From the NCBI GenBank assembly GCA_013299105.1, contig JAAFJY010000001.1, forward strand, positions 452,978-516,977: a DNA stretch of 64,000 nt. Reading direction: 5' to 3'. Within the stretch, counting starts at the first letter, position 1. Each line of letters opens with the position of its first letter. Source of the DNA: Chitinophagales bacterium. GTDB lineage: Bacteria; Bacteroidota; Bacteroidia; Chitinophagales; Saprospiraceae. Positions 7,636-62,301 of this stretch are shown here, in pieces. Both the position numbers and the translations under genes were made by a program. The notes beneath the pieces were generated by a model. It worked only from the letters and a program-made list of their open reading frames with translations, did no database searches and was not told where the DNA came from.

Positions 7636-7796
7636 AGAGTGTGTTTAAAAATTTTTGCTTGGTCCAAAATGCCCCCTTTCCGCCCACTCTTCGTTACCAA
7701 AATGCTCATTATGCGCTGCATAACTCCGCTTTTGGCGCCTTGATTGGACGAAAATGTGCTCATTTTCGCCTTCAATCCTAAACTTAAACATCCTCT
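7636..7796. mobile_element. MITE-like element, family A, full-length copy 1 (161 bp)
   Basis: Ends are inverted repeats: AGAGTGTGTTTAAA at the left and the complement of AGAGGATGTTTAAG at the right. The whole unit matches 62141-62301 in the same orientation with identical length, including TTTTTGCTTGG.CCAAAA, TCGTTACCAAAATGCTCATT, ATGCGCTGCATAACTCCGCT and TTCAATCCTAAA. No transposase is encoded. It sits between the convergent pbpC and formyltransferase genes, 8 bases after the pbpC stop. A clear target duplication was not visible. Confidence 0.75.
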
Positions 7797-7828
7797 TACT
7801 CACTTTGTATTTGAGCTCAAATACTTAC

Positions 7829-8647
7829 TTACTTCAACTCAAACCTTCTCATCCAAGCCAAATAATTTTTGGGATCGACGATTTTGTACCCCTTGTTTTC
7901 AAAATCCTGCCATTCTTGTTCGATAGGGAAGCTGTAATAAGCGGGCATCCCCTGGTCTTGAGGATGAGTAGGTATCGCTTCTCCAGCTAAAATGCGCTGA
8001 ATGTTACTGGTCAGCAAATCACTCGCCGCAGGGTACAAACGTAAAATGTGGTCCAACAAGCTATCATTTGATTCCGCCAGAATCGAAACCGTACCCAAGA
8101 CTCGCCCTGTATCAATGGTGCCATCGTCGATGAAATGCAGGGTACCTGTGATCTCGGCATCACCATTTTGCAAGGCGCGGAACACAGCTAATACACCCCG
8201 GTACTCCGGCAAGCGTCCTGAGTGGAAATTGACCACTCCCAAGTGGGGAATTTTCAAAAATTCAGCACCAAAGATCCGACCATAACGCACTGACAAGACT
8301 AGATCTGGTCTCAGGCTGCGAAACTGCTCCAGGGCTGCTGGGCTGCGCACATCGTTGCAAGAGGCGATGGGTATCCCATATTTTTGTGCCAACTCGCCAA
8401 AACTAAACCAGTGTTCGCCCCGTAGATCGCGCTTGGCGGCCTCCCATGCTGGAAAAAGAAGTTCATTGGGCAGATTTTGCTCAAAAAACTTGAGCGCTTG
8501 CAATTGAAAGGGTACTTCCTTTTGGGCCCCACCTACTTTATCTGACAAAAAAACATGGCTGACCAAGTGATGGATGCTGGGCAAGAGGCAATTGAGATTG
8601 ACCAAGCTGGCTAGGTCGCGGTTGGTGAAGATGATGATTTTAGGCAT
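7829..8647 (-). CDS. Formyltransferase-fold protein (methionyl-tRNA formyltransferase-like)
   Basis: A 272-residue protein with the formyltransferase fold. Key residues of the family are visible: N140 and H142 in VVNFHSGRLPEYRG and the Asp of HFIDDGTIDTG (D174/D175), equivalent to the Asn-His-Asp set that transfers formyl from N10-formyl-tetrahydrofolate. It lacks the C-terminal tRNA-binding domain of Fmt, so it is not the general initiator-tRNA enzyme; a sugar-nucleotide N-formyltransferase or small-molecule transferase is more likely, but the acceptor cannot be read. ATG 8647 fits the N-terminal beta strand (PKIIIFTNRD). It begins 7 bases after the sensor gene's stop and is probably co-transcribed with it. 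Confidence 0.8.
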   Translation of the reverse strand: MPKIIIFTNRDLASLVNLNCLLPSIHHLVSHVFLSDKVGGAQKEVPFQLQALKFFEQNLPNELLFPAWEAAKRDLRGEHWFSFGELAQKYGIPIASCNDVRSPAALEQFRSLRPDLVLSVRYGRIFGAEFLKIPHLGVVNFHSGRLPEYRGVLAVFRALQNGDAEITGTLHFIDDGTIDTGRVLGTVSILAESNDSLLDHILRLYPAASDLLTSNIQRILAGEAIPTHPQDQGMPAYYSFPIEQEWQDFENKGYKIVDPKNYLAWMRRFELK

Positions 8648-8654
8648 GTTATGG

Positions 8655-11600
8655 TCATTCACTTGGCAATTTACCAAATTCCTTCTTATAGGTTTTGGTA
8701 AAGTAGGAAGGCGTATTGAACCCCACTTGATACGCTACTTCGGCTACGGTAAGATTGCTGGTTTCGAGCAATTGTTGTGCCCGCATCAAGCGTACTTGAC
8801 GGATATAGGCATTGCCCGACAGGTTAGTCAGGCTCTGGAGTTTGCGGTACAGTTGCATTTTACTCATGCCCAGCGCAGCCTCCAGGCGATCCACATTGAA
8901 GTTTACATCGGCAATGTTTTCTTCAATGAGGCCAATGACTTTTTGCAAAAACAACTCGTCTTTTTTGGCAATGGATCCAGCTTGTTTCGCTTCTGTTTCG
9001 CCAGGTTTCAGCAGTTTAGAGTAATAAGCCTGCAATCGTTGTCTTTGTTCCAATAGGTTGCGGATGCGGGCAGCCAACACCTTGAAATGAAAAGGCTTGG
9101 TGAGGTAATCATCCGCTCCGGTTTCCAAACCGATCAGTTGGCTTTCTACCACCGAGCGAGAAGTCAACAACACAAAGGGAATGTGTGAAGTTTTTTCATC
9201 GTTTTTCAGCGCCTTACACAATTCGAAACCGTCCATTTCGGGCATCAGTAGGTCGCTGACAATGAGGTTGGGTAAATATTTCAGCGCCAAGTCTTTGGCT
9301 ATTTTACCATTTTCAGCGCTCATCACGGTGTATTCCGAGCCCAAGTTCATTTCCAGGTAATTGCGCATTTCTTCGTTGTCGTCAGCAATGAGAATAATCT
9401 TGGCTAAGGCTAGTTCTTTTTCACTTTTTAATGCCTGACCGTTGCTCAATTTTAGTTCCGGTTCAGGAGAAAACCATTCTTGTTGCTGCCCCCCTTGCTC
9501 GCTGCCCAACCATTCGGCCGGGAAAGCTTTAGCATAAATTGGAATTTGAACACTAAATTGGGTACCCACACCCTGTTCACTTGCTACTTGGATGTCTCCC
9601 CCGTGAATTTTTACCAGTTCTCTGGTCAATGCCAATCCAACGCCAGTTCCTGCCTGTTTTTGGTAGTGCTGGCGATCAATTTGGAAAAATCGCTGAAACA
9701 AATGCTCTAATTCCTGCTTTGAGATACCATGCCCAGTATCCTTGACACAAAAAGTCAAAAAGGGCCTTTCCTGCCCTTCAATTTGGGCTTCAAAGACCAC
9801 TGTGCCCCCTTTCGTGGTAACCTTCAAAGCATTAGACAGTAGATTGTAAAGGATTTTTTCCAAGGCATCAGCATCAAACCAAGCTTGCTGCTCGGCAAAT
9901 GGGGCATCAAAAACTAAAAAAACACCTTGTTTTTCGGCTTGATAATCGAAAGAATGCACGGTTTTTTCTAAAAGCGATCGAATGTCTTGCTGGTCAATAT
10001 GCAAATGAAAACGATTGGCATCTATCTTAGATAAATCGAGTAGTTGGTTCACCAAACGGACCAAACGGCTAGCGTTGCGGCGAATAATAGCGTAGCGTTC
10101 ACGGGTTTTTTCTTTGCCTAAATCCTGTGTGTTCAACAGCTGCTCGATAGGGTCAAGGATCAGGGTAAGTGGTGTACGGAGTTCATGTGAAATATTGGTA
10201 AAAAAATTGGTCTTCATTTGGTCCAAAGCCCGAATATTGTCAGTTTCAATTGCTTGGATGCGCAGTTGAGATTTCAGTTCTTCGCGTTTTCGTACGTGAT
10301 CGCGGTACAGCCAAAGGGCAAAAGCAAAAAGCAAAAAGTAAACCAATATTGCAGGCCAAGACAAATACCAGGGGGCTGCAACGCGCAATTCAAGGCTACG
10401 GCCTTTTTCGTCCCAAATCCCATCGCTATTGGCCGCTTTTACTCGAAAGGTATATGTCCCCGGACTCAGGTTGGTGTACGTTGCACTGCGCTCTTTGCCA
10501 GCATAAATCCAATCTTCGTTGAAGCCTTCCAATTTATACGCATAGGTACATTCATTATTGGGCTGAAAAAAAAGCGCTACAAAATCAAGGGTGATTGATC
10601 GGGCCTGGAAGTAACTCAGGCGCAAACATTTGGTTTCATCCAAGCTTTTTTCAAGTGGCGACCCCGTAGCCTGAGGCGTAGCAACCTGGTTCAGTAGGCG
10701 CAAGTTGCTGAAATACATGCGTGGCCTGCGTTGGTCGTCCTTTACATCCTTAGGGTTAAAGTAGTTGAGCCCGTGCATGCCCCCGAAATACAATCGGCCA
10801 TCAGGTGCTTGGTAAGATAGGTTGTTGAAAAACTCTTTGCCCTTCAATCCGTCCCGATTGCTAAAAGTTCGATAGGAGTTTTTTGCAAAATCAATCCTAC
10901 AAATTCCTTCATTGGTGGCTACCCAAAGCCTGCCCTGGTCATCGTCCTGGATGCTGCGAATTACATCATTGGGTAACCCATTATGGATACTGTAACGTTG
11001 GAAATCACCAGTTTTTGCTTTGTACAAATACAAACCGCTGCCATTGGTGCCTACCCAAATGCGTTTTTTACGGTCACAAAACACATTGTTGATGTGGCGT
11101 TGATTAGGGTCTCGATCTGGGTTTCGGTCCAACAGCATAGGGATAACTTCACCTGTGCGAGGGAAATAACGCCAAATACCCTGGTTATAGGTCCCGATCC
11201 AAAAAGTACCATATTCGTCGGTGGTGATGCTGGTTAAGGAAGCAATAGATTGTTTGAGTACATTGGTCACTTCTTTCTTGACTGGATCAAAACGCAAGAA
11301 CTGACCTAAACTAGTCCCCATCCAATAATAACCATCATAAAAAAAGACATTGGTCTGTACTCTAAATACTGGTCCCTTGGGTTCTTGTAAAGTGTAGCGA
11401 TACTGTGTAAAGGTTTCCCCTCCATCCGCTGAGTAGTAAAAACCTTCATGCCAAATGGGTATAATCATTTCTCGGCCTCGGGTGTGCAGAGTGGTGATGT
11501 CTTTGTCATGAAGTATTAGCGTACTGGTTCCAGTTCGATCATCCACAAACAAAAGCCCTCGAGAGGTTGCCGCCCAAAAGCCCTTTTCGTTGGAGCCAAG

Positions 11601-12665
11601 CCCAGTTACTTTGTTTACACTAATGCTATTGATCGGCGAGTAATGGCCAAATGTTAGCGGCTTAGAATAAACAATGTTGATACCTCCTTCCCAAATGCCG
11701 ATCCAAATATTTCCAAATGCGTCGCAATAAACGGTGTGAAGGGCATGGCTACTAAGGTGACCCAGTTTTGAATCTGGGGGAATAAAGGAGGGATCACGCA
11801 AAGTTTCAGCGTCGACTACAATCATGCCCGCATCACAGGTAATCCACAGTTTGCCATTATGGTCCTCTATAAATTTCCGCATCAAATTTCGGCCTTCAAA
11901 TTCCCCTTGATAGAAGATGGCAGATTTTAATGCCTTTTTTTGTTCATCATATACAAAAATTCCTTGTTGATTTGTACTACACAAGATTTTACCGCCACTG
12001 GTTTGAGCAAGATTGTTTATCCGCCCTACTGCTACGGGAAGTGGTTTTTTGCTCCATGCTATTTGCTTGAAATCCCCTTTGAAGTTATCTGCCATCCAGA
12101 TTTCTCCTTGTGAATCACCTATCCATACTCGTTTTTGTCGATCGATAAAAAGGGAGCTGTAAGGAGCAGAAGGAGGTATCTTATCCAGGGTCTGGACTTT
12201 ATTCGTTGAGTCGATTTTAAAAATTCGATTGAGACCTATCATCCAAACATTTCCCTCTGGATCCTCCGCAAAACCTGAAATTTCAAAATGCTGAATATCT
12301 AAACCCTCAACTGTACGCGTAAAGCGGGTTATTTTTTCTGTGGTGCGGTCCAACAAATTGAGCCCACCCGTAGAAGTACCAATCCAAAGTCGGCCCCTAG
12401 AGTCCTCAAAAATGCTACGGATGTCATTGTTGGAAAGGGTGTTGGGGTCTTTGAAATCGCTGCGGTAAACCTTGAACCCATAACCGTCATAGCGATTCAG
12501 GCCATCCATACTGCCAAACCACAAGAAACCCTTGCGATCTTGCAGAATACATTGGATGCTGCTTTGCGACAAACCATCGGCTGAACTGAGTTTTTGAAAG
12601 TGGTATTGTGTAAATCCTTGAACAGCCCACAGCATAGCAAAGTAAACAGCTAGCGATCTTAACAT
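8655..12665 (-). CDS. Hybrid two-component system sensor/response regulator (Reg_prop, Y_Y_Y, HisKA, REC, AraC)
   Basis: A 1336-residue one-protein two-component system. After a signal peptide (LRSLAVYFAMLWAVQGFTQ) come about 650 residues of Reg_prop beta-propeller repeats (e.g. DRKGFLWFGSMDGLNRYD, DSRGRLWIGTSTGGLN), a Y_Y_Y domain near 680-745, one membrane helix near 765-785, HisKA with the phosphoacceptor in NISHELRTPL (about H826), an HATPase domain, a receiver domain with the phosphoacceptor Asp in IVSDLLMPEMDGFEL (about D1137) and an AraC-type DNA-binding domain at the end (LTVAEVAYQVGFNTPSYFTK). In Bacteroidota such proteins sense oligosaccharides in the periplasm and activate adjacent degradation genes. 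The glycosidase pair upstream is a likely target. Confidence 0.95.
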   Translation of the reverse strand: MLRSLAVYFAMLWAVQGFTQYHFQKLSSADGLSQSSIQCILQDRKGFLWFGSMDGLNRYDGYGFKVYRSDFKDPNTLSNNDIRSIFEDSRGRLWIGTSTGGLNLLDRTTEKITRFTRTVEGLDIQHFEISGFAEDPEGNVWMIGLNRIFKIDSTNKVQTLDKIPPSAPYSSLFIDRQKRVWIGDSQGEIWMADNFKGDFKQIAWSKKPLPVAVGRINNLAQTSGGKILCSTNQQGIFVYDEQKKALKSAIFYQGEFEGRNLMRKFIEDHNGKLWITCDAGMIVVDAETLRDPSFIPPDSKLGHLSSHALHTVYCDAFGNIWIGIWEGGINIVYSKPLTFGHYSPINSISVNKVTGLGSNEKGFWAATSRGLLFVDDRTGTSTLILHDKDITTLHTRGREMIIPIWHEGFYYSADGGETFTQYRYTLQEPKGPVFRVQTNVFFYDGYYWMGTSLGQFLRFDPVKKEVTNVLKQSIASLTSITTDEYGTFWIGTYNQGIWRYFPRTGEVIPMLLDRNPDRDPNQRHINNVFCDRKKRIWVGTNGSGLYLYKAKTGDFQRYSIHNGLPNDVIRSIQDDDQGRLWVATNEGICRIDFAKNSYRTFSNRDGLKGKEFFNNLSYQAPDGRLYFGGMHGLNYFNPKDVKDDQRRPRMYFSNLRLLNQVATPQATGSPLEKSLDETKCLRLSYFQARSITLDFVALFFQPNNECTYAYKLEGFNEDWIYAGKERSATYTNLSPGTYTFRVKAANSDGIWDEKGRSLELRVAAPWYLSWPAILVYFLLFAFALWLYRDHVRKREELKSQLRIQAIETDNIRALDQMKTNFFTNISHELRTPLTLILDPIEQLLNTQDLGKEKTRERYAIIRRNASRLVRLVNQLLDLSKIDANRFHLHIDQQDIRSLLEKTVHSFDYQAEKQGVFLVFDAPFAEQQAWFDADALEKILYNLLSNALKVTTKGGTVVFEAQIEGQERPFLTFCVKDTGHGISKQELEHLFQRFFQIDRQHYQKQAGTGVGLALTRELVKIHGGDIQVASEQGVGTQFSVQIPIYAKAFPAEWLGSEQGGQQQEWFSPEPELKLSNGQALKSEKELALAKIILIADDNEEMRNYLEMNLGSEYTVMSAENGKIAKDLALKYLPNLIVSDLLMPEMDGFELCKALKNDEKTSHIPFVLLTSRSVVESQLIGLETGADDYLTKPFHFKVLAARIRNLLEQRQRLQAYYSKLLKPGETEAKQAGSIAKKDELFLQKVIGLIEENIADVNFNVDRLEAALGMSKMQLYRKLQSLTNLSGNAYIRQVRLMRAQQLLETSNLTVAEVAYQVGFNTPSYFTKTYKKEFGKLPSE

Positions 12666-12797
12666 GCTTGTAGGTGATTTTAACTCGAACACCAAGGTAG
12701 ACTTTCGATTGGTAAAATGCCAAATAAAAATATGGTTTACCTAAAAATAGATAATTTTTCCATTGTTTAATCTTTAAACCACGTGCGGATGGAAAAC

Positions 12798-14069: not shown

Positions 14070-14071
14070 GG

Positions 14072-17068: not shown

Positions 17069-17451
17069 AATAAGGTTCAAAAGCAAGATTTAACAAAATA
17101 GACTGATATGGGCTGAATGGTGTTGTGAATTCTCCCGAAAACTGGAAAAATCCCTCCAATGAAAAAGTAAAAGTTCTTGGGAAAAATAGCGTGCAGAGAT
17201 GCTCTCAGTGGCTAAATATAGGTCCTTTAGCCGAGACTACAAGGCTGAGGCCGATTTTTTGCGGAAAATTAACGTTTTGGGGTGGTGATCGTTCAGGGAA
17301 AAAAGCATGCTCTTTAGCCCGAAATTGGAAACATTTATCTATTCTTGGGCCAAGATTGTAAAAAATTCCTGAAATTGATCCTCATCTCTATGTTCCCTTC
17401 TTTTCAACATTTCAACCCTGGTCTTTTCAACTAAAAAACCGCCTGCGTAGT
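17069..17451. other. Divergent intergenic region, no gene seen
   Basis: This 383-base gap separates the minus-strand GH3 operon from the plus-strand amidohydrolase and must hold both promoters. I see no convincing TTTG-N19-TAnnTTTG match. At 17398-17432 it holds a CTTTTCAAC..TTCAAC motif cluster that recurs before the trpB2-like gene and next to scpA. Confidence 0.5.
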
Positions 17452-33513: not shown

Positions 33514-33849
33514 GAAATTGGATTGTCCTTTGGAAGGAGTGAAATTGGATAATGCAAAAATGATCATTAGGTACAAAAAAACGCTATCTTTCCGCCTGTA
33601 AAAATTCAAAAAGCTTTTGACCGAGGGAATAGTTGCCAAAAGTAGTAAAAAATTAGCCTAGCGGTTTCGAGACAAAAAAGCAGGCAGTTTTTGTTCCATC
33701 AAGCCTATTTTTTGGAGTCGATGCCCAGCATCGGCGGAAAAAAGGCAGGGGGGAGCAAAAATTACCTTTTTGGGCCGAAACATGAGCAGGATAAGCTTTT
33801 ACCAAAATTAAATGTTTTCCTCATTCAAGTTCCAATTTTGCTCACCCGC

Positions 33850-35190: not shown

Positions 35191-35508
35191 CTTAGTAACG
35201 GGTAAAAAATAAACCTTTCCAGTTTTATAAAACTCACGCACATCAACGTAACGGTCAACGTCATACTGGAAATCCGCAAGAATGGGTGTCTCGAGTGTGA
35301 GTGTGGGTACGAGTGTGAGTGGCTTCGAGCCGAATCTATCGACTCAGCTAATTGGAACTGGGGTTCATGCACACTCACACCCAAACCCAATTTTATCCGC
35401 GTGCTAAAAACGGCCTCACGCACCGTGTCAAGCTCCGCCTGAGCAAGGACATAGTTAATAAAGTACGCAGTTGCAATTGGTAAGGTTTATTCGTGGCTTG
35501 TCACTAAC
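35191..35508. mobile_element. Repeat family D, copy 1 (~318 bp, inverted ends), abuts truncated gene
   Basis: Starts CTTAGTAACGGGTAAAAAAT and ends with TAAGGTTTATTCGTGGC then TTGTCACTAAC; the ends are imperfect inverted repeats (TTAGTAAC and TTAGTGAC; AAACCTT on both sides). The unit matches 58335-58632 in the same orientation, including CTGGAAATCCGCAAGAATGG and CCCAAACCCAATTTTATCCG. The centre has a TGTGAGTG/CACTCACA hairpin. No transposase. Its right end coincides with the point where the adjacent AAA-ATPase gene is cut. Confidence 0.65.
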
Positions 35509-36491
35509 GGTTGTCGATGGTATAACTTTCGAAGGCCCGCTCGTTGTGTTCTAATTGCTCAAGGCTAAAAAACTGGTATTTGCGCAACTGTTCAATGAGA
35601 AATTTGGGTGTTCCGGTAGCAAACCAGTAGTTGCTGAAATGTCGGTCGTGCAAAAAACGCATGAAGGAAACTGGGTTGTACAACAAGTTTTTGACATCCC
35701 AGGAATAACCATTGTACCAGCGCTTGATTTCGGCGGCAAAAGCTTTGGGTTCGTAGCCCAGTTCTAGCCGGGCGAGTGATAAGTAATCTTAAAAATACTT
35801 GCTTAGCTCAGGTTCAGTATAGCCCAGTAAGGTCGAAAAAGGACGGGCTAGGGTAACGTCTTCCAACTGGTTGAGTTTGGAAACACACTCACCGGGCTGA
35901 ATTTGAAGATGCCCGTGAGCATCAAAAATTCCAATTTATCGCCATTGGGTTTGGATATGCCATAGAAGTCGCCTAAGATGGTCCAGCTTAGTTCGGCCTC
36001 ATCGGGTTTGTGAAGTACGTCCAGCATGGGCATGTCATACTCGTCGATGAGGATGACCACTTTTTGGCCATGTTTTTCGTAAAGCTTGTCAATGAATTCT
36101 TCCAGGCGTAAGCCAGGCGTTTCCGCACTCAGGCTAATGCCTTGGGGCCGGGCCAGGTTATCTAAGTGCGCCATCAAGCCTTTTTTCAAGCCCAGATCCT
36201 AGAAGCACATGCGGTCCATGTAAAAATGAAGGCTGGATGCACCCGGCTCCAGTCCCATTTTTCTTCGGCCCATGGTCCCTTGAATAAATCCTTGTGCCCA
36301 GCGAAGAGTTGGGCAATGGTGGACAAGAGCCGGGACTTGCCAAAACGGCGGGGGCGGGCAAGAAAAACGCTTTTGTATGCTCCAAGTAACTCACAAATCA
36401 AAGAGGTTTTGTCCAGGTAGATGGTGCCTCGTGTAATCAGTTCGTCAAAACGTTGTATGCCTAATGGTAGGTTTTCATGGGGTAATGACAA
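35504..36491 (-). pseudogene. Broken AAA-ATPase-like/PDDEXK_9 family gene
   Basis: Pieces of a protein of the AAA-ATPase_like plus PDDEXK_9 family are spread over three frames. 36491-36186 encodes the N-terminus (LPLGIQRFDELITRGTIYLD, Walker-type VFLARPRRFGKSRLL). 36189-35848 encodes the central part (VVILIDEYDMPML, LEFLMLTGIFKFS). About 35730-35504 encodes WYNGYSWD and LYNPVSFMRFL then stops at TIDNR. Frameshifts lie near 36215, 36180 (a run of A/T) and 35870. The C-terminal nuclease domain is absent: the frame runs into repeat D at 35508, whose end provides the TAG stop. Intact members are poorly understood and often multi-copy. Confidence 0.8.
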
Positions 36492-45272: not shown

Positions 45273-45320
45273 AGAGGATGTTTAAACTTACGACCAAGCA
45301 AAAAATTTTAAACATACTCT
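45273..45320. mobile_element. Internally deleted MITE-like element, family A (48 bp)
   Basis: AGAGGATGTTTAAACTTACG at the left and the complement of AGAGTATGTTTAAAATTTTT at the right correspond to the two ends of the 161-bp element (right end and left end, inverted here) with the middle missing. The ends can pair as a 14-base stem with one mismatch. It falls between the predicted promoter and the start codon of the topoisomerase gene, so it should form a hairpin in the 5' leader. Confidence 0.75.
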
Positions 45321-45344: not shown

Positions 45345-47939
45345 GTGTCAGCACCCAATAACGACAATACCCAGATCATTCACTTGCAAGGCATGTACCA
45401 GGATTATTTTCTGGACTATGCCTCCTATGTAATCCTCGAACGTGCCGTTCCCAACATCGACGATGGTTTAAAACCCGTGCAGCGCCGCATCCTGCACTCG
45501 ATGAAAGAAATGGACGACGGGCGTTACAACAAGGTCGCCAACATCATTGGCCAGACCATGCAGTACCACCCGCATGGCGACGCGGCCATTGGTGATGCAC
45601 TCGTGAACATGGGGCAAAAGGACTTGCTGATCGATACCCAGGGCAACTGGGGCAACATTTTCACTGGCGACGGTCCAGCGGCTCCGCGTTACATTGAGGC
45701 TCGCCTGACCAAGTTTGCGCTGGAGGTCCTGTTCAATGCCCAAACCACCGAGTGGCAGCTCTCCTACGACGGCCGCAAACGCGAGCCGATTGAACTACCT
45801 GCCAAGTTTCCATTGCTGCTGAACATGGGTACGGACGGAATCGCGGTGGGTTTATCCACCAAAATTTTGCCCCACAACTTCATTGAGCTTTGCGACGCTT
45901 CGGTGGACATTTTGAAGGGCAAAAAAGTTAAAATTTACCCCGATTTCCTCACGGGAGCTTCGGTGGATGTGAGTGACTACAATGGCGGCAAACGCGGCGG
46001 CAGGGTCAAGGTGCGGGCGCGTATTGAAAAAATGGACAAGGATGTGCTTGCTATTCGCGAATTGCCTTATGCCGTGACCACCGAAAGCCTGATCGAAAGC
46101 ATCATCAAGGCCAACGACAAGGGTAAAATCAAAATCAAAAAACTTTCCGACAATACCGCCAGGGACGTTGAAGTACTGATCGAACTGGTGCCAGGCACCT
46201 CGCCCGACGTAACCATCGACGCCTTGTACGCCTTTACTGACTGTGAAGTATCGATCTCGCCCAACGCTTGCGTAATCATTGACGAGAAGCCACACTTCAT
46301 GACCGTAGAGGAAATCTTGGAGCGCAATACCCAAAATACCAAGGACCTGCTGAAGTTGGAGCTCGAAATCAAGCTGCACGAACTCCTGGAAAAATGGCAC
46401 CTGGCGAGCCTGGAAAAAATCTTCATCGAAAACCGCATTTACCACGAAATCGAAGAGTGCGAAAGCTGGGAAGAAGTGCTCCTCACCATTGATCGCGAAT
46501 TGCGGAAGTACGTCGTGGTTCCATCCGAAAACCCCGATGCCAAGGACCATCGCCTACGCCTGATGCGCGACATCACCGAGGACGACATCACCAAGCTGAC
46601 TGAAATCAAAATCAAGCGCATTTCAAAGTACAACACCTTCAAAGCCGACGAGTACATCGGCAACCTGGAGGAAGAAATGAAGCAAGTGCGGCACGACATC
46701 GAAAACATCGTCGATTTTAGCATTGCTTTTTACCGCCGCCTCAAAGAAAAATATGGCAAAGGCCGCGAGCGCAAAACCAAGCTCATGGCCTTTGAGTCAA
46801 TCCAAGCCACCGAGGTAGTGGCCAACAATGCCAAACTCTACGTCAACCGCGCCGATGGCTTCATCGGTTTTGGCATGAAAAAAGACGAGTTTGTATGCGA
46901 TTGTTCGGACATTGACGACATCATCGTTTTCCGGGCCGATGGCAAGTTCATGGTCAAGCGCATCACCGAAAAAACTTTTGTGGGCAAAGACATCATCCAC
47001 GTAGCAGTGTGGAAGAAAAACGACGAGCGCACTACTTATAACTTGGTGTACAGCGACGGCAAAACTGGCCGCACTTTCGCCAAGCGTTTCAACGTAACGG
47101 CCATCACCCGCGACAAGGACTACGACCTGACCAGCGGAGAAAAAGGCTCTAAATTACTCTACTTTACCGTCAACAACAACGGCGAGGCAGAAATCGTCAA
47201 CATCCAATTGACCCAATCCTCCACGGCCAAGAAAAAACTCTTGGAGTTCGACTTCAAAGAACTGGCGATCAAAGGCCGCAGCTCGCAAGGCAACATGGTG
47301 ACCAAGTACCCTGTGCGCAAGGTTTCGCTCAAGGAAGCTGGCAAATCGACCATCGGTGCCCGCAAAGTGTGGATGGACATGGTGAGCGGTCGCCTGTACA
47401 CCGACCCGCGTGGTCATTTCCTTGGCGATTTTGACACGGGCGAAAAAATGATGGTGCTCTACAAAGATGGCACTTACGAACTGCAAGAGCTCGACCTGAC
47501 CCGCCGCTACAACCCTGAGGAGCTCATCACCCTGAGCAAGTTCGATCCCGAAGCAGTGATCAGCGCGGTGCATTATGACGGCATCAAGGGCCAAACCTTG
47601 GTCAAGCGTTTCCGCATCGAAACCAGCACCCTCAACCAACGCTTCAGCTACCTGAGCGACCACAAAGACTCAAAACTGCTCTTTGCCACCCTGGAAACCA
47701 ATCCCAAAGTGCGCTATGTGCTGAAAGTGAAAAACAAAAAACTGGAAGGAGAAGTCAATCTCGTGGACTTCATCGACGTGAAAGGCTGGAAAGCCCTGGG
47801 CAACAAGCTCAGCGACCAGCGCCTAAGCGAGGTGGAAATGATCGAAAACAAGGAAGCCGCCCCTGTCGTGCCTGAGAAACTGCAAGCTGGCGACAGCGTG
47901 GAGTTTGAGGTGGATAGGCAGCCGAGGTTGTTTGAGTGA
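45345..47939 (+). CDS. parC: DNA topoisomerase IV subunit A (GyrA/ParC family)
   Basis: An 864-residue type IIA topoisomerase A subunit. The catalytic tyrosine is Y116 in APRYIEARL; the quinolone-pocket region HPHGDAAIGDALV precedes it. A winged-helix, tower and coiled coil follow (to about 450), and the C-terminal 350 residues form a degenerate beta-pinwheel. The length and weak GyrA-box conservation fit the ParC-type enzymes of Bacteroidota rather than gyrase. It decatenates daughter chromosomes with ParE, which is not in the window. The start is GTG 45345. A small frame overlaps its stop by four bases. Confidence 0.93.
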   Translation: MSAPNNDNTQIIHLQGMYQDYFLDYASYVILERAVPNIDDGLKPVQRRILHSMKEMDDGRYNKVANIIGQTMQYHPHGDAAIGDALVNMGQKDLLIDTQGNWGNIFTGDGPAAPRYIEARLTKFALEVLFNAQTTEWQLSYDGRKREPIELPAKFPLLLNMGTDGIAVGLSTKILPHNFIELCDASVDILKGKKVKIYPDFLTGASVDVSDYNGGKRGGRVKVRARIEKMDKDVLAIRELPYAVTTESLIESIIKANDKGKIKIKKLSDNTARDVEVLIELVPGTSPDVTIDALYAFTDCEVSISPNACVIIDEKPHFMTVEEILERNTQNTKDLLKLELEIKLHELLEKWHLASLEKIFIENRIYHEIEECESWEEVLLTIDRELRKYVVVPSENPDAKDHRLRLMRDITEDDITKLTEIKIKRISKYNTFKADEYIGNLEEEMKQVRHDIENIVDFSIAFYRRLKEKYGKGRERKTKLMAFESIQATEVVANNAKLYVNRADGFIGFGMKKDEFVCDCSDIDDIIVFRADGKFMVKRITEKTFVGKDIIHVAVWKKNDERTTYNLVYSDGKTGRTFAKRFNVTAITRDKDYDLTSGEKGSKLLYFTVNNNGEAEIVNIQLTQSSTAKKKLLEFDFKELAIKGRSSQGNMVTKYPVRKVSLKEAGKSTIGARKVWMDMVSGRLYTDPRGHFLGDFDTGEKMMVLYKDGTYELQELDLTRRYNPEELITLSKFDPEAVISAVHYDGIKGQTLVKRFRIETSTLNQRFSYLSDHKDSKLLFATLETNPKVRYVLKVKNKKLEGEVNLVDFIDVKGWKALGNKLSDQRLSEVEMIENKEAAPVVPEKLQAGDSVEFEVDRQPRLFE

Positions 47940-48118: not shown

Positions 48119-48135
48119 GCCTAAAAACTCAGTAA

Positions 48136-48262
48136 GGGAGCGTAAAAAAATAAGGTGGACAGGTTTGGGGTTCGTAAAAAAAGATGAGCAACTGGATGAA
48201 AGGAAGTTGTGTTCTTTTTTTGCTAAACCTCAAAAACAAAGAGGTCCACCTTATTTTAGCTC
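48136..48262. repeat. Repeat family B, copy 2 (inverted relative to 3032-3170)
   Basis: Bounded by GGGAGCGTAAAAAAATAAGG and GTCCACCTTATTTTAGCTC, an inverted pair. Shares AACTGGATGAAAGGAAGTTG and TGTGTTCTTTTTT with the reverse complement of copy 1. A short frame across it is not conserved. The remaining 48263-48994 gap holds repeats I and H, palindromic GCGCTTTAAAGCGC at about 48568, and no gene. Confidence 0.65.
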
Positions 48263-48415
48263 AAATACGAAGGCGATTTTTAAATTAAAACCTACTCAAA
48301 TAGAACAGAAAATAGGCTACTTCTTGGATGGACATTGTCCTGAATTTTTTCTTGCTTTTTAGTACCTGACAAGGCTGGATACAAATCTAAAGCCTTGATT
48401 TTCAATAAAATATTT

Positions 48416-51920: not shown

Positions 51921-51923
51921 GCT

Positions 51924-54964: not shown

Positions 54965-55148
54965 GGTCTGGGTTTTGGAGGTGAAGATAGGCGTTTTGGG
55001 CCCGTTTTTTACAAAGCTACTTCGTTTGCACGGGCACTAGTGAGTAGAAGACCATCGGGCTGGTAATGGCGCACCATTTCATTGGTGTTGCAGTAGTATT
55101 TGGATTTTTACATAGATTGTCAGAGGTCCATAATTAACAACGATCCAC

Positions 55149-55859: not shown

Positions 55860-55874
55860 GTGGGTTTTTAATCG

Positions 55875-57812: not shown

Positions 57813-57991
57813 TTCTTTATGGTCTTTTAGGCACAGAAGTTGAAAACGGGGAATTTGATGGCCGTTCGCATCATTTGGTTTTACTGGCCAACAAATAGCG
57901 AACTAAGATAACAACTTTATCGCAATGTGGATAGTAAAAGTGTTGCAGGCAGTGATTTTCACCTAAAAAAACGTAAGTTCTGGTTTGTTAG

Positions 57992-58125
57992 GCATGTTTT
58001 TTGACCTATGATAGCCGATAGACGACATATGATTTGGGGGCTCGCTGGGGAAATTTGTCATGTTTATTAGGTTCTCGTTTGCACGGTTTGAGATTTTTGA
58101 AATTTAAAATTGACAAGTAATTGCC
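57992..58125. repeat. Repeat family E, copy 2 (inverted relative to 1593-1738)
   Basis: Contains GGCATGTTTTTTGACCTATG, GGGGCTCGCTGGGGAAATTT, AGGTTCTCGTTTGCACGG and TTTGAGATTTTTGAAATTT, as in the reverse complement of copy 1. The gap 57813-58760 contains repeats E, C and D in series and a hairpin, and no gene I can support. Confidence 0.6.
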
Positions 58126-58193
58126 AGTTTTCAAGAATAAATCCTTGAAAAACAACTTCTTTTAGGGCGTGTAAAAAATAAGGTGTATTGAGA

Positions 58194-58340
58194 ACTTAGT
58201 AGTTTATTTTTTAAGTTCGCTAAACCATCGTAAATGAATTTTGGCATTAAAAAGGTAAGCATATCAGCCTTTTTGCCGATTCACCTCCACCAATCAGTAG
58301 AGGAGTTAATTACGAGAACTTAAAAAACGCTGTACTTAGT
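58194..58340. repeat. Repeat family C, copy 2 (inverted relative to 2883-3028)
   Basis: Bounded by ACTTAGTAGTTTATTTTTTA and AACTTAAAAAACGCTGTACT, which are inverted relatives. Shares GCTAAACCATCGTAAATGA and GCCGATTCACCTCC.CCAATC with the reverse complement of copy 1. Its right end overlaps the left end of repeat D (both contain ACTTAGTA), so the elements are fused. Confidence 0.65.
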
Positions 58341-58632
58341 AACGGTTCAAAAATAAACCTTACCAAGTTTTTTGATTGCCAGTTGTCAACATCATGGTCA
58401 ACGTCATGCTGGAAATCCGCAAGAATGGGTGTGGAGTGTGCAAGTGTGAGTTGGGGTGTGGGAGCTTCGTGCTTTTACTTTTGTCTCCGATCACTTGAAA
58501 ACGGGATTTTCTCACACTCACACCCAAACAAACACACCCAAACCCAATTTTATCCGCGTTCCCAAAATAGCCTCGCGCAGCGGGGCAACGCAGTTGCGAT
58601 TTGGTAAGGTTTATTCGTGGCTTGTCACTTAC
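58335..58632. mobile_element. Repeat family D, copy 2 (~298 bp, inverted ends)
   Basis: Direct copy of 35191-35508: CTTAGTAACGG at the left, GGTAAGGTTTATTCGTGGCT then TGTCACTTAC at the right, with CTGGAAATCCGCAAGAATGG and CCCAAACCCAATTTTATCCG inside. The TGTGAGT/ACTCACA hairpin in the centre is kept but with different arm lengths, which suggests replication slippage or hairpin turnover. Confidence 0.65.
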
Positions 58633-58684
58633 AGTAAAAACGATGAGTTTTTTGACTCGCTAAAGTCTATTTTGGTACACACAC

Positions 58685-58720
58685 AGAAAGGGCTTCAGAA
58701 AATCTTCCGAAGCCCTTTCT
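58685..58720 (-). terminator. Hairpin downstream of the ECF sigma gene
   Basis: Perfect 12-bp stem AGAAAGGGCTTC (58685-58696) and GAAGCCCTTTCT (58709-58720) with a 12-base loop. It lies 40 bases beyond the stop of the minus-strand sigma gene. The following bases on that strand are GTGTGTACC, so it lacks a T-run. Confidence 0.5.
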
Positions 58721-58760
58721 CAAATACTGATCTTATGGAAAACAAGAATTGTAAAGGTAT

Positions 58761-59288
58761 TTAAGCCCTTTCGCGGTAGCTTTCATCAAAAAGCTTTTGC
58801 AGTTTTTTGCGGGCAAAGAAAATGCGGCTTTTGATGGTCCCCAGCGGAGAACCAAGTTCTTCTGCGATTTCTTCGTACTTAAAACCTTCGTAAGCCATCA
58901 AAAACGGCTCACGAAAATCTTCAGGAAGGGTATCCACCAATTTCATCAACTCATTAAACTCCACTGAATGTTCGCCGTCGTTATTTACAGCGTCACTGCC
59001 AGAGTTTAGGTAATAACCATTGGGGGTTTGGTCAACGATCAGGTTGCGGCGAACTTTCTTGCGGTAATTGTTGATGAAAATATTCCGCATAATGGTCACT
59101 GCCCAAGCTTTGAAATTGGTGCCTTGGTTGTATTTGTCTGCATTGGTGATGATGCGCACTGCGGTTTCTTGGTACAAATCATCTGCTTCTGCATTGCTGC
59201 CAGTCAGTTTGAGCGAAAAAGCGCGAAGAGAATTGCTCACGCGTTCTAACTGCTCGTAGATCGGATTTTTTTGGATGGCGTATAACAT
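58761..59288 (-). CDS. ECF RNA polymerase sigma factor
   Basis: A 175-residue sigma factor distinct from the FecI-like one at 1792. Region 2 (about 15-85: FSLKLTGSNAEADDLYQETA, FKAWAVTIMRNIFINNYRKK) and region 4 (about 112-170: LPEDFREPFLMAYEGFKY, EIAEELGSPLGTIKSRIFFA, KKLQKLF) are complete. The sequence is very like a widely kept, stand-alone ECF factor of Bacteroidota. There is no anti-sigma gene next to it. It is divergent from the XRE regulator, and has a good promoter upstream. Confidence 0.93.
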   Translation of the reverse strand: MLYAIQKNPIYEQLERVSNSLRAFSLKLTGSNAEADDLYQETAVRIITNADKYNQGTNFKAWAVTIMRNIFINNYRKKVRRNLIVDQTPNGYYLNSGSDAVNNDGEHSVEFNELMKLVDTLPEDFREPFLMAYEGFKYEEIAEELGSPLGTIKSRIFFARKKLQKLFDESYRERA

Positions 59289-59387
59289 GGCGCGTGAATT
59301 TATTTGGGTTATCGAAGAGCTTAAGCTCAGGTCGGGGACCGTTTTGAAGAGCTTTGCCAGGCTTCAAGATTTTGTAAATTCTGTTGA

Positions 59388-59418
59388 CAAAATTACCAAA
59401 ACCCGAGCCAGAATGCAA
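59388..59418 (-). promoter_or_regulatory. Bacteroidota-type promoter for the ECF sigma gene
   Basis: On the minus strand, TTGC (59418-59415) and TAATTTTG (59395-59388) are separated by 19 bases, a fair match to TTTG-N19-TAnnTTTG. It would start transcription near 59381, giving a leader of about 90 bases. The plus-strand side has TACATTTG at 59532-59539 ahead of the XRE gene, without a clear -33 partner. Confidence 0.5.
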
Positions 59419-59682
59419 GATTTTTTTTCTATTTAGACTTTATTTTGATAAAAATGATTCTTTGACGACATTTTTCGACTTTTTCGAAGTGAAATGTTAA
59501 AATTATTAACAAGTTTAGAACCAAAGTGGCTTACATTTGTATTTATATCTTAGCGGTCACTTGTCAGAACGGCATGACAAGCTGACAAAAAGCAACGTGG
59601 TCTGAATATTTTTTGTACAAACATGCCCTTTTGGCAGGTTTTTTTTGCAGTACTTTTAGAAAACCACCCTAAAGTAGTTTGG

Positions 59683-60234
59683 ATGAACATGGAGACCTTT
59701 ACGCCGCCGATGCTGGAACAGAGTACTTTTTTGCACAAAAACATTCGTTTTTTACGCAAACAAATTGGTTTGAGCCAAGAAGAATTGGCACTCAGCATTG
59801 GCCTCAACCGGGGCAATATCGCTTCCTATGAAAATGGCAGCGCCGAACCCAAAGTTTGTAACCTTTTGCGGATATCTAATCTGTTTAAAGTTTCGATCTG
59901 CGATTTGGCCAAACGCGATTTGAGTGAAGACAACAATTTTCGCGCCAAAGTTGCTTTCGACGCCATCACTTCAGCCTTGCCTGAAAATACATGTCTGGAT
60001 GCTCTTACTTTGGAAGCGCAGGATTTGCAAAAAATGATCGAGGGTTTGAGCACTTGTAGTAGATTGAAAATCAATCAATTGCGTGACAATGCGCCCTCCG
60101 AATACCGCTTGATCATCTCAAATCTGGAAGAGATGTCCAACACTGCCCGTATTCTCAGCGAAAGATACCTTTTCCTCTTGCAGCACATCAATTGCAAAGA
60201 TAAAACTGACCATCCGTCGAATAAAGGTTGTTAG
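59683..60234 (+). CDS. XRE family HTH transcriptional regulator
   Basis: A 183-residue regulator with an N-terminal Cro/C1-type helix-turn-helix (about residues 17-72: NIRFLRKQIGLSQEELALSI, GLNRGNIASYENGSAEPKV, LLRISNLFKVSICDLAKRDL) and a helical C-terminal region of about 105 residues that may dimerise or sense a signal. The residues before 59683 (frame open to 59623) lack similarity, so ATG 59683 or 59689 is the likely start. Divergent from the ECF sigma gene, which it could regulate; this is inference from position only. Confidence 0.85.
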   Translation: MNMETFTPPMLEQSTFLHKNIRFLRKQIGLSQEELALSIGLNRGNIASYENGSAEPKVCNLLRISNLFKVSICDLAKRDLSEDNNFRAKVAFDAITSALPENTCLDALTLEAQDLQKMIEGLSTCSRLKINQLRDNAPSEYRLIISNLEEMSNTARILSERYLFLLQHINCKDKTDHPSNKGC

Positions 60235-60329
60235 CCCTTGACTTCTTTGTTTTTTAGGGTATACATTTATAGGTTTTTAGCGCTCATTTTCAATGCTGAG
60301 CGCATTGCCCATGAACCTATTGTAATCTC

Positions 60330-61166
60330 ATGAACAAGATGTCTCTCCTGTTAGGGGGCTTATGGTGTATTTTCTTTTGCACTTGCCGCCTGACCGTTTA
60401 CGCCGATGTGCAATTTCAGCACCTTTCGCTGGCCGAAGCCAAAAACCAGGCCGCACAATTACGCAAACCAGCTTTGTTGTACTTTTCAGCCAATTGGTGC
60501 ATGCCTTGCCATTGGATGGAAGAAAATGTTTTTGCCGACCAGGAGTTGAGTAAAGTCCTGAACCAGCAATACCTTCCTGTCAAAATTGATGTGGATGAAG
60601 TACAGGGGTTTGCTGACAAAGAGAGCTGTCAGGTGCAGTTTCTACCCTCTCTGTTGTTGATTTCTCCTGAAGGACGAATAGTCGGACGATTTGAATCCAC
60701 CAGGAACGCGCAAGAGTTGATCAAGAACTTGACTGAGGCTCGAAGCAACCCTTCTGCCGCCCAAGCCAGCCCAAATCTTGTGGTTCGTAACGCGAGTAAT
60801 TTTACCATACCAAATGACGCCAAAGCCACAGAACCTGCACCCTTCAAAATCATGACCCAAGTACCAAGCAACGAAAACTTCGCAGTCAACGGGGGTTCAA
60901 GTGTACCGCCAGTGGCTCGCCAGGCCATTTTCAGGCCGCGTGGTATACAGTTAGGCATGTACAGCAATTACGAGGCGGTGATCAAACAAGTTCAGTTTTT
61001 TGAGCAAAAATTTGGCAGCACAGTAATCATCAATGCACAACTTCAAGAAGGTAAGACACTTTATCAATTGGCTGTTGGACCTTTCGATAACCCCGATCAA
61101 TTGCAGAATTACTTGGGGGCTTTACAAAAGGAAGGACTCAAATGGCTGCTTTTTGAGTGGAAATAA
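60330..61166 (+). CDS. Exported thioredoxin-fold protein with C-terminal SPOR-like domain
   Basis: A 278-residue protein. A signal peptide (LLLGGLWCIFFCTCRLTVYA) is followed by a thioredoxin_7-like domain (about 25-135) with the redox motif C57-MP-C60 in SANWCMPCHWMEENVF and the cis-Pro region VQFLPSLLLIS. A Ser/Pro/Asn-rich linker leads to a SPOR-like domain (about 200-278: RGIQLGMYSNYEAVIKQVQF, LYQLAVGPFDNPDQLQNYL). The pairing of a disulfide-handling domain with a septal peptidoglycan-binding domain suggests redox control of envelope proteins at the division site. Confidence 0.88.
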   Translation: MNKMSLLLGGLWCIFFCTCRLTVYADVQFQHLSLAEAKNQAAQLRKPALLYFSANWCMPCHWMEENVFADQELSKVLNQQYLPVKIDVDEVQGFADKESCQVQFLPSLLLISPEGRIVGRFESTRNAQELIKNLTEARSNPSAAQASPNLVVRNASNFTIPNDAKATEPAPFKIMTQVPSNENFAVNGGSSVPPVARQAIFRPRGIQLGMYSNYEAVIKQVQFFEQKFGSTVIINAQLQEGKTLYQLAVGPFDNPDQLQNYLGALQKEGLKWLLFEWK

Positions 61167-61231
61167 ATTGGTTCCAAATCCAAATCCCTACATGTTTCGT
61201 AAATGATTTTAAACCAAACACAGCTACGATC

Positions 61232-61816
61232 ATGTCAACAAATTATCATTTCATCACCCGCTGGGAATTGGACGCCACTTGCGAAGAAGTTTATCAAACC
61301 CTCGAAAATGCCCCAGACCTTTGCCGTTGGTGGCCCAGTGTTTATTTGAACGTGACTGAATTGCAAAAAGGTGCACCAGGGGGCGTGGGCAAAGTCATCG
61401 ACTTGTATACCAAAGGCTGGTTGCCTTACACCCTGCGTTGGCAATTCAAAGTACTCAGCAGCAATTTTCCAAATGGTTATGCACTGGAAGCCAAAGGCGA
61501 TTTTGAAGGGCGTGGTATTTGGAGTTTCAAGCCCCTGCCCGGAGGTGGTTGTGAGGCCATTTATGATTGGCAAATTGAAGCAGTAAAACCTTTATTGAAG
61601 CGCTTGACGCCACTATTACGCCCCATTTTTTCGGCAAATCACCTTTGGGCCATGCGCAAAGGTGAGGAAAGTTTGCGTTTGGAATTGCGCCGTCGGGCCG
61701 CTCAAAATGAAGCTGAACTGGCTGCTATTCCAGGGCCACCATTGCCCACCTGGCCGCATCGAAGCAAGGCACTGAGCGCGCGAAAAACGCAGACTATAAG
61801 TATCTCCAAGGCATAA
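61232..61816 (+). CDS. SRPBCC (polyketide cyclase/START-like) family protein
   Basis: A 194-residue soluble protein of the SRPBCC fold: YHFITRWELDATCEEVYQTL, DLCRWWPSVYLNVTEL, WRFKV-like LRWQFKVLSS and GIWSFKPLPGGGCEAIYDWQ, then a C-terminal helix (RGHLWAMRKGEESLRLEL-like; here NHLWAMRKGEESLRLELR). The cavity could bind a small hydrophobic ligand. ATG 61232 begins directly with the first strand; the open frame back to 61157 overlaps the preceding gene. It is 65 bases after the thioredoxin-SPOR gene and may share its transcript. Confidence 0.85.
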   Translation: MSTNYHFITRWELDATCEEVYQTLENAPDLCRWWPSVYLNVTELQKGAPGGVGKVIDLYTKGWLPYTLRWQFKVLSSNFPNGYALEAKGDFEGRGIWSFKPLPGGGCEAIYDWQIEAVKPLLKRLTPLLRPIFSANHLWAMRKGEESLRLELRRRAAQNEAELAAIPGPPLPTWPHRSKALSARKTQTISISKA

Positions 61817-62140
61817 GTGCAGTGCAAATCCCGATTTTAACCTTTGAAAGTCAAGATTATTGGGCGAAAAAACAACGATCTTCATTTTTGCCTTCATTTT
61901 CATGCGAAATGTGAGGTCAAGAAAAAAGGAAAAGATTTCTAGCACCACTCATTACAAGGAACTTAAAAAACGCTGTCCTTAGATTTCACAGTGCTTCACT
62001 AATTGAAAAATGCATTGGACCGGACCGTACGCAATCGAAGCACTACTAATCAATGGTTTTTTCAGTCGATTAAACTTTATGTGGCGCTTGGTCGTTCTTT
62101 CGTATATTCGCATTTTCGCCTTGCCGACTAGTCTAACCTA

Positions 62141-62301
62141 AGAGTATGTTTAAAAATTTTTGCTTGGGCCAAAACGGCCCCTTTCCGTCTATCCTTCGTT
62201 ACCAAAATGCTCATTATGCGCTGCATAACTCCGCTTTTGGTGCCTCGACTAGCCGAAGATGTGCTCGTTTTTGCCTTCAATCCTAAATTTAAACATCCTC
62301 T
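62141..62301. mobile_element. MITE-like element, family A, full-length copy 2 (161 bp)
   Basis: AGAGTATGTTTAAA at the left and TTTAAACATCCTCT at the right (one mismatch as an inverted pair). Same length and orientation as 7636-7796. Its right end is two bases before the ATG of the ABC transporter gene, so the element supplies the whole immediate leader of that gene. Frames across it are not conserved. The stretch 61817-62140 before it holds a fragment AACTTAAAAAACGCTGTCCT, like the end of repeat C, and no gene. Confidence 0.75.

What the first reader, a model, noticed from the sequence alone, without database searches (positions are those of the whole stretch)
7636..62301. A MITE-like family with 161-bp unit and AGAG..TGTTTAAA inverted ends
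Two copies (7636-7796 and 62141-62301) have the same length and orientation 54 kb apart, with matching inverted ends, and a 48-bp copy (45273-45320) consists of just the two ends joined. Diverged relatives are at 2734-2882 and 3734-3918. Equal length, terminal inverted repeats and an internal-deletion derivative are the signs of a non-autonomous transposable element. No transposase is encoded here, so a helper must lie elsewhere. I know of no description of this family, but cannot search.
Basis: partly seen in the sequence, partly recalled or inferred. Interest (0 to 1): 0.72.

Follow-up and report, generated by a model that had tools for sequence, protein, structure and literature searches.

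The report
Widespread hairpin MITEs with differing ends
The repeats are small non-coding mobile elements whose whole length of about 160 bases can fold into one hairpin, and relatives with the same fold but different transposon-type ends occur in half of the related genomes sampled, which suggests that the hairpin itself is under selection.

Summary
The repeat is real and far larger than reported. The unit is 159 bp (GAG..CTC); the outer A/T belongs to a 3-bp TNA target duplication (flanks equal in 71 of 118 copies, 30.7 by shuffling). Its genome holds at least 150 matches (cap reached); 93 of 115 copies avoid long ORFs. Its ends closely resemble those of IS5-family insertion sequences (DUF4096+DDE transposase, TNA duplication) intact in related genomes. 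No helper with exactly these ends was found in its own genome.

The surprise is inside. In relatives the whole ~160 nt forms one hairpin: 58 of 65 pairs change on both sides, covariation 0.420 against 0.136 shuffled and at most 0.107 slid. Internal loops keep their places. A covariance model finds it in 60 of 120 genomes of the family, 56 of 112 genera. Elements with other ends (GACTTTAT.., GAAGCCATCTC..) share the hairpin but are flanked by TA, suggesting another transposase. The first of these is also in this window.

Verdict: a large, structurally constrained variant of a known kind (palindromic MITEs such as ERIC). Why the hairpin is kept is unresolved.

The parts
7637..7795 (+). Subfamily A copy 1, 159 bp GAG..CTC; flanked by TTA at 7634-7636 and 7796-7798; 9 bases after the end of the ORF 5117-7627 (transglycosylase/transpeptidase domains)
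62142..62300 (+). Subfamily A copy 2; flanks TAA / TTT (no intact duplication); ends 3 bases before the ATG (62304) of an ABC-transporter ORF
7697..7735 (+). Central hairpin of copy 1: outer stem CAAAA/TTTTG, internal loop, 6-bp apical stem TTATGC-GCT-GCATAA
62202..62240 (+). Central hairpin of copy 2 (same place in the element)
45274..45319 (-). Internally deleted subfamily A copy, 46 bp, both ends joined; just upstream of the gyrA/parC-like ORF 45345-47939; flanks TTA / TCA
2735..2893 (+). Subfamily B copy, right end eroded
3732..3916 (+). Diverged subfamily B copy, left end eroded
1374..1527 (+). Subfamily C copy: ends GACTTTAT..ATAAAGTC, TA on both sides; central hairpin CGTAGC-TGG-GCTACG
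2545..2699 (-). Subfamily C copy 2, TA on both sides
33645..33802 (-). Possible distant relative: full-length hairpin (-44.5 kcal/mol) with ends GTAAAAGC../..TTTTTAC; R2 E=5.5e-5 only

Best explanation
These are copies of a superfamily of non-autonomous transposable elements (MITEs) of about 160 bp. Shown: sharp inverted ends; a 3-bp TNA target duplication for ends of the type GAnnnTGTT (subfamilies A and B and most relatives read); TA on both sides for ends GACTTTAT (subfamily C) and GAAGCCATCTC; mostly intergenic sites in the window's genome; a full-length imperfect hairpin kept by compensatory change, with internal loops at fixed positions, and matches to its model in half of the sampled genera of the family. 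Inferred: A and B are moved in trans by IS5-family (DUF4096 + DDE) transposases that recognise the outer ~17 bp; C and the GAAGCCATCTC type are moved by a different, TA-targeting (IS630-like) transposase; and the hairpin is selected for itself, while the ends are exchanged or drift to match the transposases available. The likeliest reasons for keeping the hairpin, in order: it makes the insertion tolerable or useful at the RNA level (an RNase III-type substrate or mRNA stability element in whichever strand is transcribed), or the folded DNA strand is needed for efficient movement.
For: Ends and duplication: 71 of 118 own-genome copies have equal 3-bp flanks (shuffle mean 30.7, sd 4.2, max 47 in 20000); the next base out agrees in 18 of 64. 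In other genera of the family 32 of 64 (shuffle 13.0, max 24). Transposase: in G002 four copies of a 256-aa frame identical to the query over 254 aa, with PF13340 and PF01609, the one read in full lying in a TAA-flanked element with ends GAGTATGTTCAAAATTTT. Of 13 PF13340 loci examined, eight, in seven genomes, gave ends of the same type with equal TTA or TAA flanks. First 17 nt of ten sets of IS ends against element ends of 29 genomes: best match 15-17 of 17; control at internal positions mean 4.7, max 11; 17 of 17 within the same genome for G125 and G111. Hairpin: (90.0% of cells paired against 73.2% shuffled and at most 48.8% slid; 605 double-change cells against 176.5 shuffled and at most 148 slid). 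A largely separate set of 62 distinct elements from other genera (two also in A2): 33 of 40 pairs with double changes, 93.5% paired against at most 53.1% slid. Distribution: 60 of 120 genomes; 55 of the 60 gave no sequence to the model. End classes: TA..TA in 15 of 18 C copies with 0 of 18 equal over 3 bp; 7 of 8 GAAGCCATCTC and 2 of 2 GACTTTATT elements elsewhere, against 4 of 54 for the GAnnnTGTT type and 3 of 118 for A/B. The GAAGCCATCTC type was not in the training set of R2, yet L307-L309 match it over 1-160 at 103.9-107.2 bits.
Against: No intact transposase gene with matching ends was found in the window's own genome. IS fragments there, cut at contig ends, have ends GAAGCTGTTTAAATTT, and one intact relative has GAA(G/A)CCGTTTTAAAATCC. 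IS ends do not follow the elements of the same genome: same-genome best scores were 10-14 of 17 in seven of nine comparisons. No TA-targeting transposase was looked for. No occupied/empty site pair was examined, so movement is inferred from duplications alone. In the window's own genome the full-length hairpin is weaker: RNAalifold on 44 A/B copies predicts only the central 17 pairs, copy 1 folds as several hairpins, and the stem of the A consensus pairs in 91% of cells (15 copies), that of B, which has side hairpins, in 95% (59 copies).
Confidence: 0.78

Rival explanations
1. An ordinary IS5-type MITE in which the hairpin is not selected. Palindromes keep themselves complementary because one arm is copied from the other by template switching or gene conversion during replication or transposition.
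For: Whole stem segments are replaced by unrelated yet complementary ones among subfamilies; G-T and A-C cells are both rare in stems, 31 and 86 of 3172, as expected of arm copying or of a DNA-level constraint.
Against: Arm copying would erase mismatches, but internal loops stay at the same places with conserved letters across genera. Wobble pairs are kept at some positions (columns 62-106 U-G in 51 of 59, 30-140 G-U in 48 of 59).
Confidence: 0.3
2. A structured non-coding RNA gene family (host-useful) that is copied by transposases.
For: Strong RNA fold (z -4.97 for copy 2); covariation over the full length; conserved loops; a weak likeness of subfamily C to Flavo-1 RNA (RF01705, 25.2 bits, gathering score 42).
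Against: No Rfam family reaches its threshold (window; sub-threshold only). G-U pairs do not outnumber A-C on one strand consistently: GT:AC 31:86 in A2, 45:55 in own subfamily B, 123:84 in the other-genera set. Strand relative to co-directional neighbours is only mildly skewed, 38 against 21, p=0.036 uncorrected. No promoter or expression evidence was sought.
Confidence: 0.2
3. REPIN/RAYT-like elements moved as single-stranded hairpins by a tyrosine (HUH) transposase.
For: Hairpin with conserved mismatches; intergenic; high copy number.
Against: REPINs leave no target duplication (recalled), whereas here a 3-bp duplication is strong; the ends resemble DDE-transposase IS ends. RAYT genes were not searched for.
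Confidence: 0.03

Closest known systems
ERIC / IRU (enterobacteria)
   Same: 127-bp intergenic imperfect palindrome, one long stem-loop, high copy number, regarded as a MITE (PMC2229807, PMC2267715, PMC10969869; passages read)
   Different: Different phylum; ERIC termini carry 5'-TA (PMC2229807, table in a passage); here TNA duplication and IS5-type ends in most members read, and several end classes on one hairpin. Sequence was not compared
YPAL / RU-2 (Yersinia)
   Same: About 168-bp palindromic intergenic element with RNA fold support (PMC2267715, PMC2229807; passages read)
   Different: YPAL duplications are 3-26 bp and its inverted repeats are internal (PMC2229807); sequence was not compared
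BrickBuilt, MITE239, MITE464/PgRS of Porphyromonas gingivalis
   Same: MITEs in the same phylum with ends like IS5-family ISPg elements (PMC4596501, passages read)
   Different: Their ends as tabulated there (e.g. GAGACCTTCGCA, ACGTGAGTTCGA) and interiors (23- or 41-nt tandem repeats in BrickBuilt and 464/PgRS) differ; no conserved full-length hairpin is described in the passages read
RUP (Streptococcus pneumoniae)
   Same: MITE with ends like IS630-Spn1 and TA targets (PMC2229807, passages read), an analogue of subfamily C
   Different: No hairpin shared with IS5-type elements is mentioned in the passages read; sequence was not compared
Correia / NEMIS (Neisseria)
   Same: About 155-bp MITE whose paired inverted repeats in RNA are cut by RNase III (PMC2229807, PMC10969869; passages read)
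   Different: Its TIR is given as 24 bp, while here the whole length can pair; sequence was not compared
Flavo-1 RNA (RF01705)
   Same: Bacteroidetes hairpin with internal loops; subfamily C aligns to the whole model at 25.2 bits
   Different: Below the gathering score of 42; Flavo-1 is 76 nt; link unproven

Membership tests
MITE (non-autonomous miniature inverted-repeat element) | Short, no transposase gene | tested here: met
   158-187 nt in the copies taken, too short for a transposase. One 157-aa ORF starts inside copy 2 (62207-62680) and runs out of it, out of frame with the ABC-transporter gene
MITE (non-autonomous miniature inverted-repeat element) | Terminal inverted repeats at sharp ends | tested here: met
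MITE (non-autonomous miniature inverted-repeat element) | Target site duplication | tested here: met
   TNA in 70 of 118 own copies (71 equal); 32 of 64 equal in other genera
MITE (non-autonomous miniature inverted-repeat element) | High copy number, mostly intergenic | tested here: met
   at least 150 matches; 93 of 115 outside ORFs>=100 aa, random placements 235 of 2013 outside (crude ORF caller)
MITE (non-autonomous miniature inverted-repeat element) | Demonstrated movement (occupied and empty sites) | not tested
   no empty-site comparison made
IS5-family derivative (subfamilies A, B) | Ends shared with an IS5-family IS | tested here: met
   in related genomes, 15-17 of 17 nt at best; matching helper in own genome not found
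IS5-family derivative (subfamilies A, B) | TNA 3-bp duplication as made by that IS | tested here: met
   that TNA is usual for IS427/IS1031-type IS5 elements is recalled
IS5-family derivative (subfamilies A, B) | Interior derived from the IS by deletion | tested here: inconclusive
   no likeness noticed in the IS loci read; not compared systematically
IS630-type derivative (subfamily C, GAAGCCATCTC type) | TA on both sides | tested here: met
   15 of 18 and 7 of 8
IS630-type derivative (subfamily C, GAAGCCATCTC type) | Same ends on an IS630-family IS | not tested
ERIC | Sequence of the ERIC consensus | not tested
   not compared; whether Rfam holds ERIC was not checked
Flavo-1 RNA (RF01705) | Score over the gathering threshold | tested here: not met
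   25.2 bits, threshold 42

The most novel reading that the evidence does not exclude
A hairpin module about 160 nt long is the conserved, selected unit across a bacterial family. It is independent of any one transposase: it travels with IS5-type ends (TNA duplication) in some lineages and with TA-targeting ends in others, even in the same genome. In effect it is a structured selfish or domesticated nucleic acid that changes its vehicle.
Probability: 0.35. Interest if true: 0.82.

Novelty: new variant of a known kind. Interest (0 to 1): 0.62.

Why it matters
The bacterial palindromic MITEs in the papers seen here are described within one genus or one bacterial family, and whether their hairpins are functional has been hard to tell. 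Here one hairpin can be followed through 56 of 112 sampled genera, with full-length compensatory change and at least two classes of ends. That makes the old question, what the hairpin of a MITE is for, directly testable: hairpin mutants, end swaps, RNase III mutants. It also gives a ready covariance model for annotating these genomes.

Tried and rejected
Structured RNA of a known family: rejected; no Rfam match over threshold in the window, and in ten loci only sub-threshold hits at E 0.045-0.55 (one of them lies on an element, L124, and calls its long hairpin a plant microRNA precursor). Flavo-1 likeness was followed and left open: no viral-contig match to a Flavo-1 stretch; matches on Paraclostridium plasmids did not lead back to these elements.

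Named-organism search: the exact core of subfamilies A/B gave 0 loci in genome contigs and viral contigs. The core of the relatives gave 18 loci, all in three MAGs titled Saprospiraceae or Chitinophagales. One element of G002 gave no match in phages and one in plasmids, on Haliscomenobacter hydrossis pHALHY01; subfamily C gave none in plasmids. That G002 is H. hydrossis DSM 1100 rests on recall of its chromosome length and on this plasmid.

Helper in own genome: eight PF01609 matches had no flanking ends of the right kind at up to two mismatches; PF13586 added no new place in G000.

Strand test (G-T against A-C in stems) for an RNA function was inconclusive. IS ends following element ends within genomes: true for two (G125, G111), not for the other seven compared, one of them a second IS of G111; G018 had an IS but I gave the script no G018 elements.

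Papers: of PMC4596501, PMC10969869, PMC2229807, PMC2267715 and PMC2864571 I read passages only; the rest I saw as search listings. Searches behind 'not described'; judged from titles and starts of abstracts, none describes these elements. Subscription journals and ISfinder were not searchable.

Rows dropped: 3 hits without recognisable ends and one window mis-assignment; A1 used 44 of 58 copies; one search used 15 A and 59 B of 118; 3 of 118 copies lacked flanks; of 40 loci, 2 gave no core, 2 no ends, and 2 gave lengths of 80 and 189 nt (left out of A2 with duplicates); one search used 24 of the 30 loci; one search used 13 loci, five of which gave no usable ends (for G002 the script took a wrong ORF; its ends come); one search used 62 distinct of 64; the 64 come from the best-scoring list, not a random sample, and one lacks a left flank.

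Full report
Observation. The window lies at 452978-516977 of contig C1 of a 7.67-Mb genome. BLASTN with copy 1 gave 41 matches there, most of them full length. The end pattern TWAGAGNATGTTTAAA with up to one mismatch occurs 232 times, its reversed control 4 times. A covariance model built from 44 copies (R1) matched 150 of 150 scored candidates in this genome, a cap, 51 of 150 in G002, 8-12 in the other three genomes of the genus, and 0-13 in five others of the family.

Exact ends. I took 118 own-genome copies with both ends recognisable. The 3 bases before GAG and after CTC are equal in 71 of 118, against 30.7 (sd 4.2, maximum 47) when right flanks are shuffled: TTA 36, TAA 28, TGA 4, TCA 2, one other. 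The next base out agrees in 18 of 64, as by chance. So the element is GAG..CTC and the target is TNA. Since TAA and TGA are stop codons, insertion at a stop codon can leave it intact: 14 of 93 intergenic copies begin or end at the last base of a neighbour's stop by a crude ORF caller. Of 115 copies with enough flank, 22 overlap an ORF of 100 aa or more by over 40 bp, against 1778 of 2013 random placements.

Subfamilies. B (163 bp, the commonest length, 59 of 118) includes 2735-2893 and 3732-3916. A and B share the apical stem TTATGC-GCT-GCATAA and differ by compensatory change in the stem below it: C-G 25, G-C 18 and G-U 1 at one pair, A-U 22, G-C 19 and C-G 3 at the next. Internally deleted copies recur: 45274-45319 in the window, and another in L080 with TTA on both sides.

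Helper. In G003 such ends lie within about 130 bp of a contig end in 18 of 23 hits, as if a longer repeat had been collapsed in assembly, and one kind of end reads inward as the C-terminus of an IS5-type transposase; four contig ends of the window's own genome hold a 71% identical piece. In G002 four frames of 256 aa are identical, with PF13340 and PF01609 domains; the one read in full (L092) is in an element flanked by TAA with ends GAGTATGTTC. PF13340 was found in 12 of 28 carrier genomes. Of 13 of these loci, eight in seven genomes (G004, G018, G076, G080, G111 twice, G122, G125) gave ends beginning GA and holding TGTT or TGTC, with equal TTA or TAA flanks. Element and IS ends agree in 15-17 of 17 positions at best, the internal control in 4.7 on average and 11 at most. 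Within the same genome the best match is 17 of 17 for G125 and G111 but 10-14 in the other seven comparisons. So the helper type is well supported and the individual helper is not.

The hairpin. The strand of each of the two window copies folds better than any of 200 shuffles (z -3.0 as DNA for copy 1, -5.0 as RNA for copy 2), although copy 1 prefers several hairpins to one, and RNAalifold on 44 own copies keeps only the central 17 pairs. In the genus it is clearer: of 36 copies with ends recognised, 34 are 159-164 nt long and fold into one hairpin of -50 to -83 kcal/mol (one of the 34 is from G023, another genus). Alignment A2 has 59 sequences: 45 from G001-G004, 6 from three other genera (G007, G020, G023), 7 own A/B and one subfamily C. 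With the hairpin of one member as structure, 90.0% of 3806 cells pair, 58 of 65 pairs change on both sides somewhere, and the covariation score is 0.420. Shuffles give 73.2%, 36.6 and 0.136; slid registers at most 48.8%, 48 and 0.107. Taking the structure from a member favours the unslid register for cells paired; the double changes are the stronger evidence, and relatedness was not modelled. Internal loops stay in place: TTCGTT or similar against GCCTC/T, TGCTCA or TCCTCA against ACTCC, and CAAA against CTCA/G. These letters are not universal: TTCGTT is exact in 38, GCCTC/T in 59 and CTCA/G in 62 of 62 elements, the last too short to mean much.

Spread. Model R2 from A2 matched 60 of 120 genomes drawn from the family at E<=1e-4, 56 of 112 genera, with up to 24 matches a genome, the number scored. 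Five of the 60 (G000, G002, G007, G020, G023) had given sequences to the model. The matches listed all run from position 1 to 160; the list is cut. In 64 of these from other genera, taken from the best-scoring list, 3-bp flanks are equal in 32, shuffle mean 13.0, maximum 24. These flanks were not part of the model, so they show that the matches end where transposons end and are not just any long hairpins. Realigning the 62 distinct ones (two also in A2), with RNAalifold's own structure, 33 of 40 pairs have double changes and 93.5% of cells pair, slid at most 53.1%. Named records put the elements in MAGs titled Saprospiraceae and Chitinophagales bacterium and, by BLASTN over 68% of the element, on a plasmid of Haliscomenobacter hydrossis DSM 1100 in a stretch without a listed gene. 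The family is therefore Saprospiraceae in the broad sense; NCBI places Haliscomenobacter in Haliscomenobacteraceae.

Different ends. Subfamily C (window 1374-1527 and 2545-2699) was found by R1, which had no C member, at E=6e-5 and 0.033. BLASTN with it gives 36 matches in the genome, some of them the two strands of one palindrome. Of 18 copies with both ends, 15 have TA on both sides and none has equal 3-bp flanks. The GAAGCCATCTC type in G012, G073 and G124, absent from R2's training set, matches R2 at 104-107 bits in three members and has TA on both sides in 7 of 8. The GAnnnTGTT type shows TA..TA in 4 of 54 and own A/B in 3 of 118. So one hairpin architecture is joined to at least two kinds of transposon end. 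That the TA kind means an IS630-like transposase is recalled knowledge; no such gene was searched for.

What it does. Movement in trans by IS5-type transposases is the best reading for A and B. Why the hairpin is kept is open. If only a one-strand RNA mattered, G-U should be common and A-C rare; the ratios GT:AC are 31:86, 45:55 and 123:84 in three sets, the last including columns where the wobble is conserved. This favours no strand and fits a DNA-level or both-strand constraint. Pure arm copying is disfavoured by the fixed internal loops. The weak orientation skew (38 against 21 co-directional, p=0.036 uncorrected) points to the minus strand if to any.

Novelty. Long-stem MITEs are known (ERIC, YPAL, RPE, Correia, RUP: PMC2229807 passages; PMC2267715 passages; PMC10969869 passages), and P. 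gingivalis has IS5-type MITEs (PMC4596501 passages). I found no description of this family in the listings. What looks new is the family-wide persistence, the full-length covariation with fixed loops, and the shared hairpin under two end types.

Noticed in passing
window 33645-33802 (-): A 158-nt full-length hairpin with ends GTAAAAGC/..TTTTTAC that R2 scores at E=5.5e-5; possibly a further end class or a chance hairpin.
   Followed up: partly
L389 (CP124692.1 plasmid, 12123-12180) and four other Paraclostridium bifermentans plasmids: The Rfam Flavo-1 consensus matches Paraclostridium plasmids at 84-90% identity over about three quarters of its length (E down to 6e-13, no annotated gene under the match), outside the Bacteroidetes in which Flavo-1 was described.
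   Followed up: partly
window 4087-4634: A minus-strand ORF region (4000-4716, 4031-4903) with a long array of degenerate ~30-nt repeats.
   Followed up: no
window 35243-35511 and 58386-58635; 1592-1693 and 58022-58125; 2896-3028 and 58194-58327; 3014-3171 and 48135-48281: Other dispersed repeats in direct and inverted copies; one of them (2896 onward) begins right at the eroded end of the subfamily B copy. Their relation to the MITE was not tested.
   Followed up: no
L066 (G003 C356:5859-5906): A perfect palindrome made of two copies of one IS left end (GAGTATGTTTAAATTTCTGCTAGCAGAAATTTAAACATACTC), extending into the flanks.
   Followed up: no
L082 (G000 C10, from 10610 for about 570 bp): An element with TAA on both sides that seems to hold a subfamily A unit lacking one end plus other DNA, a possible composite.
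   Followed up: no
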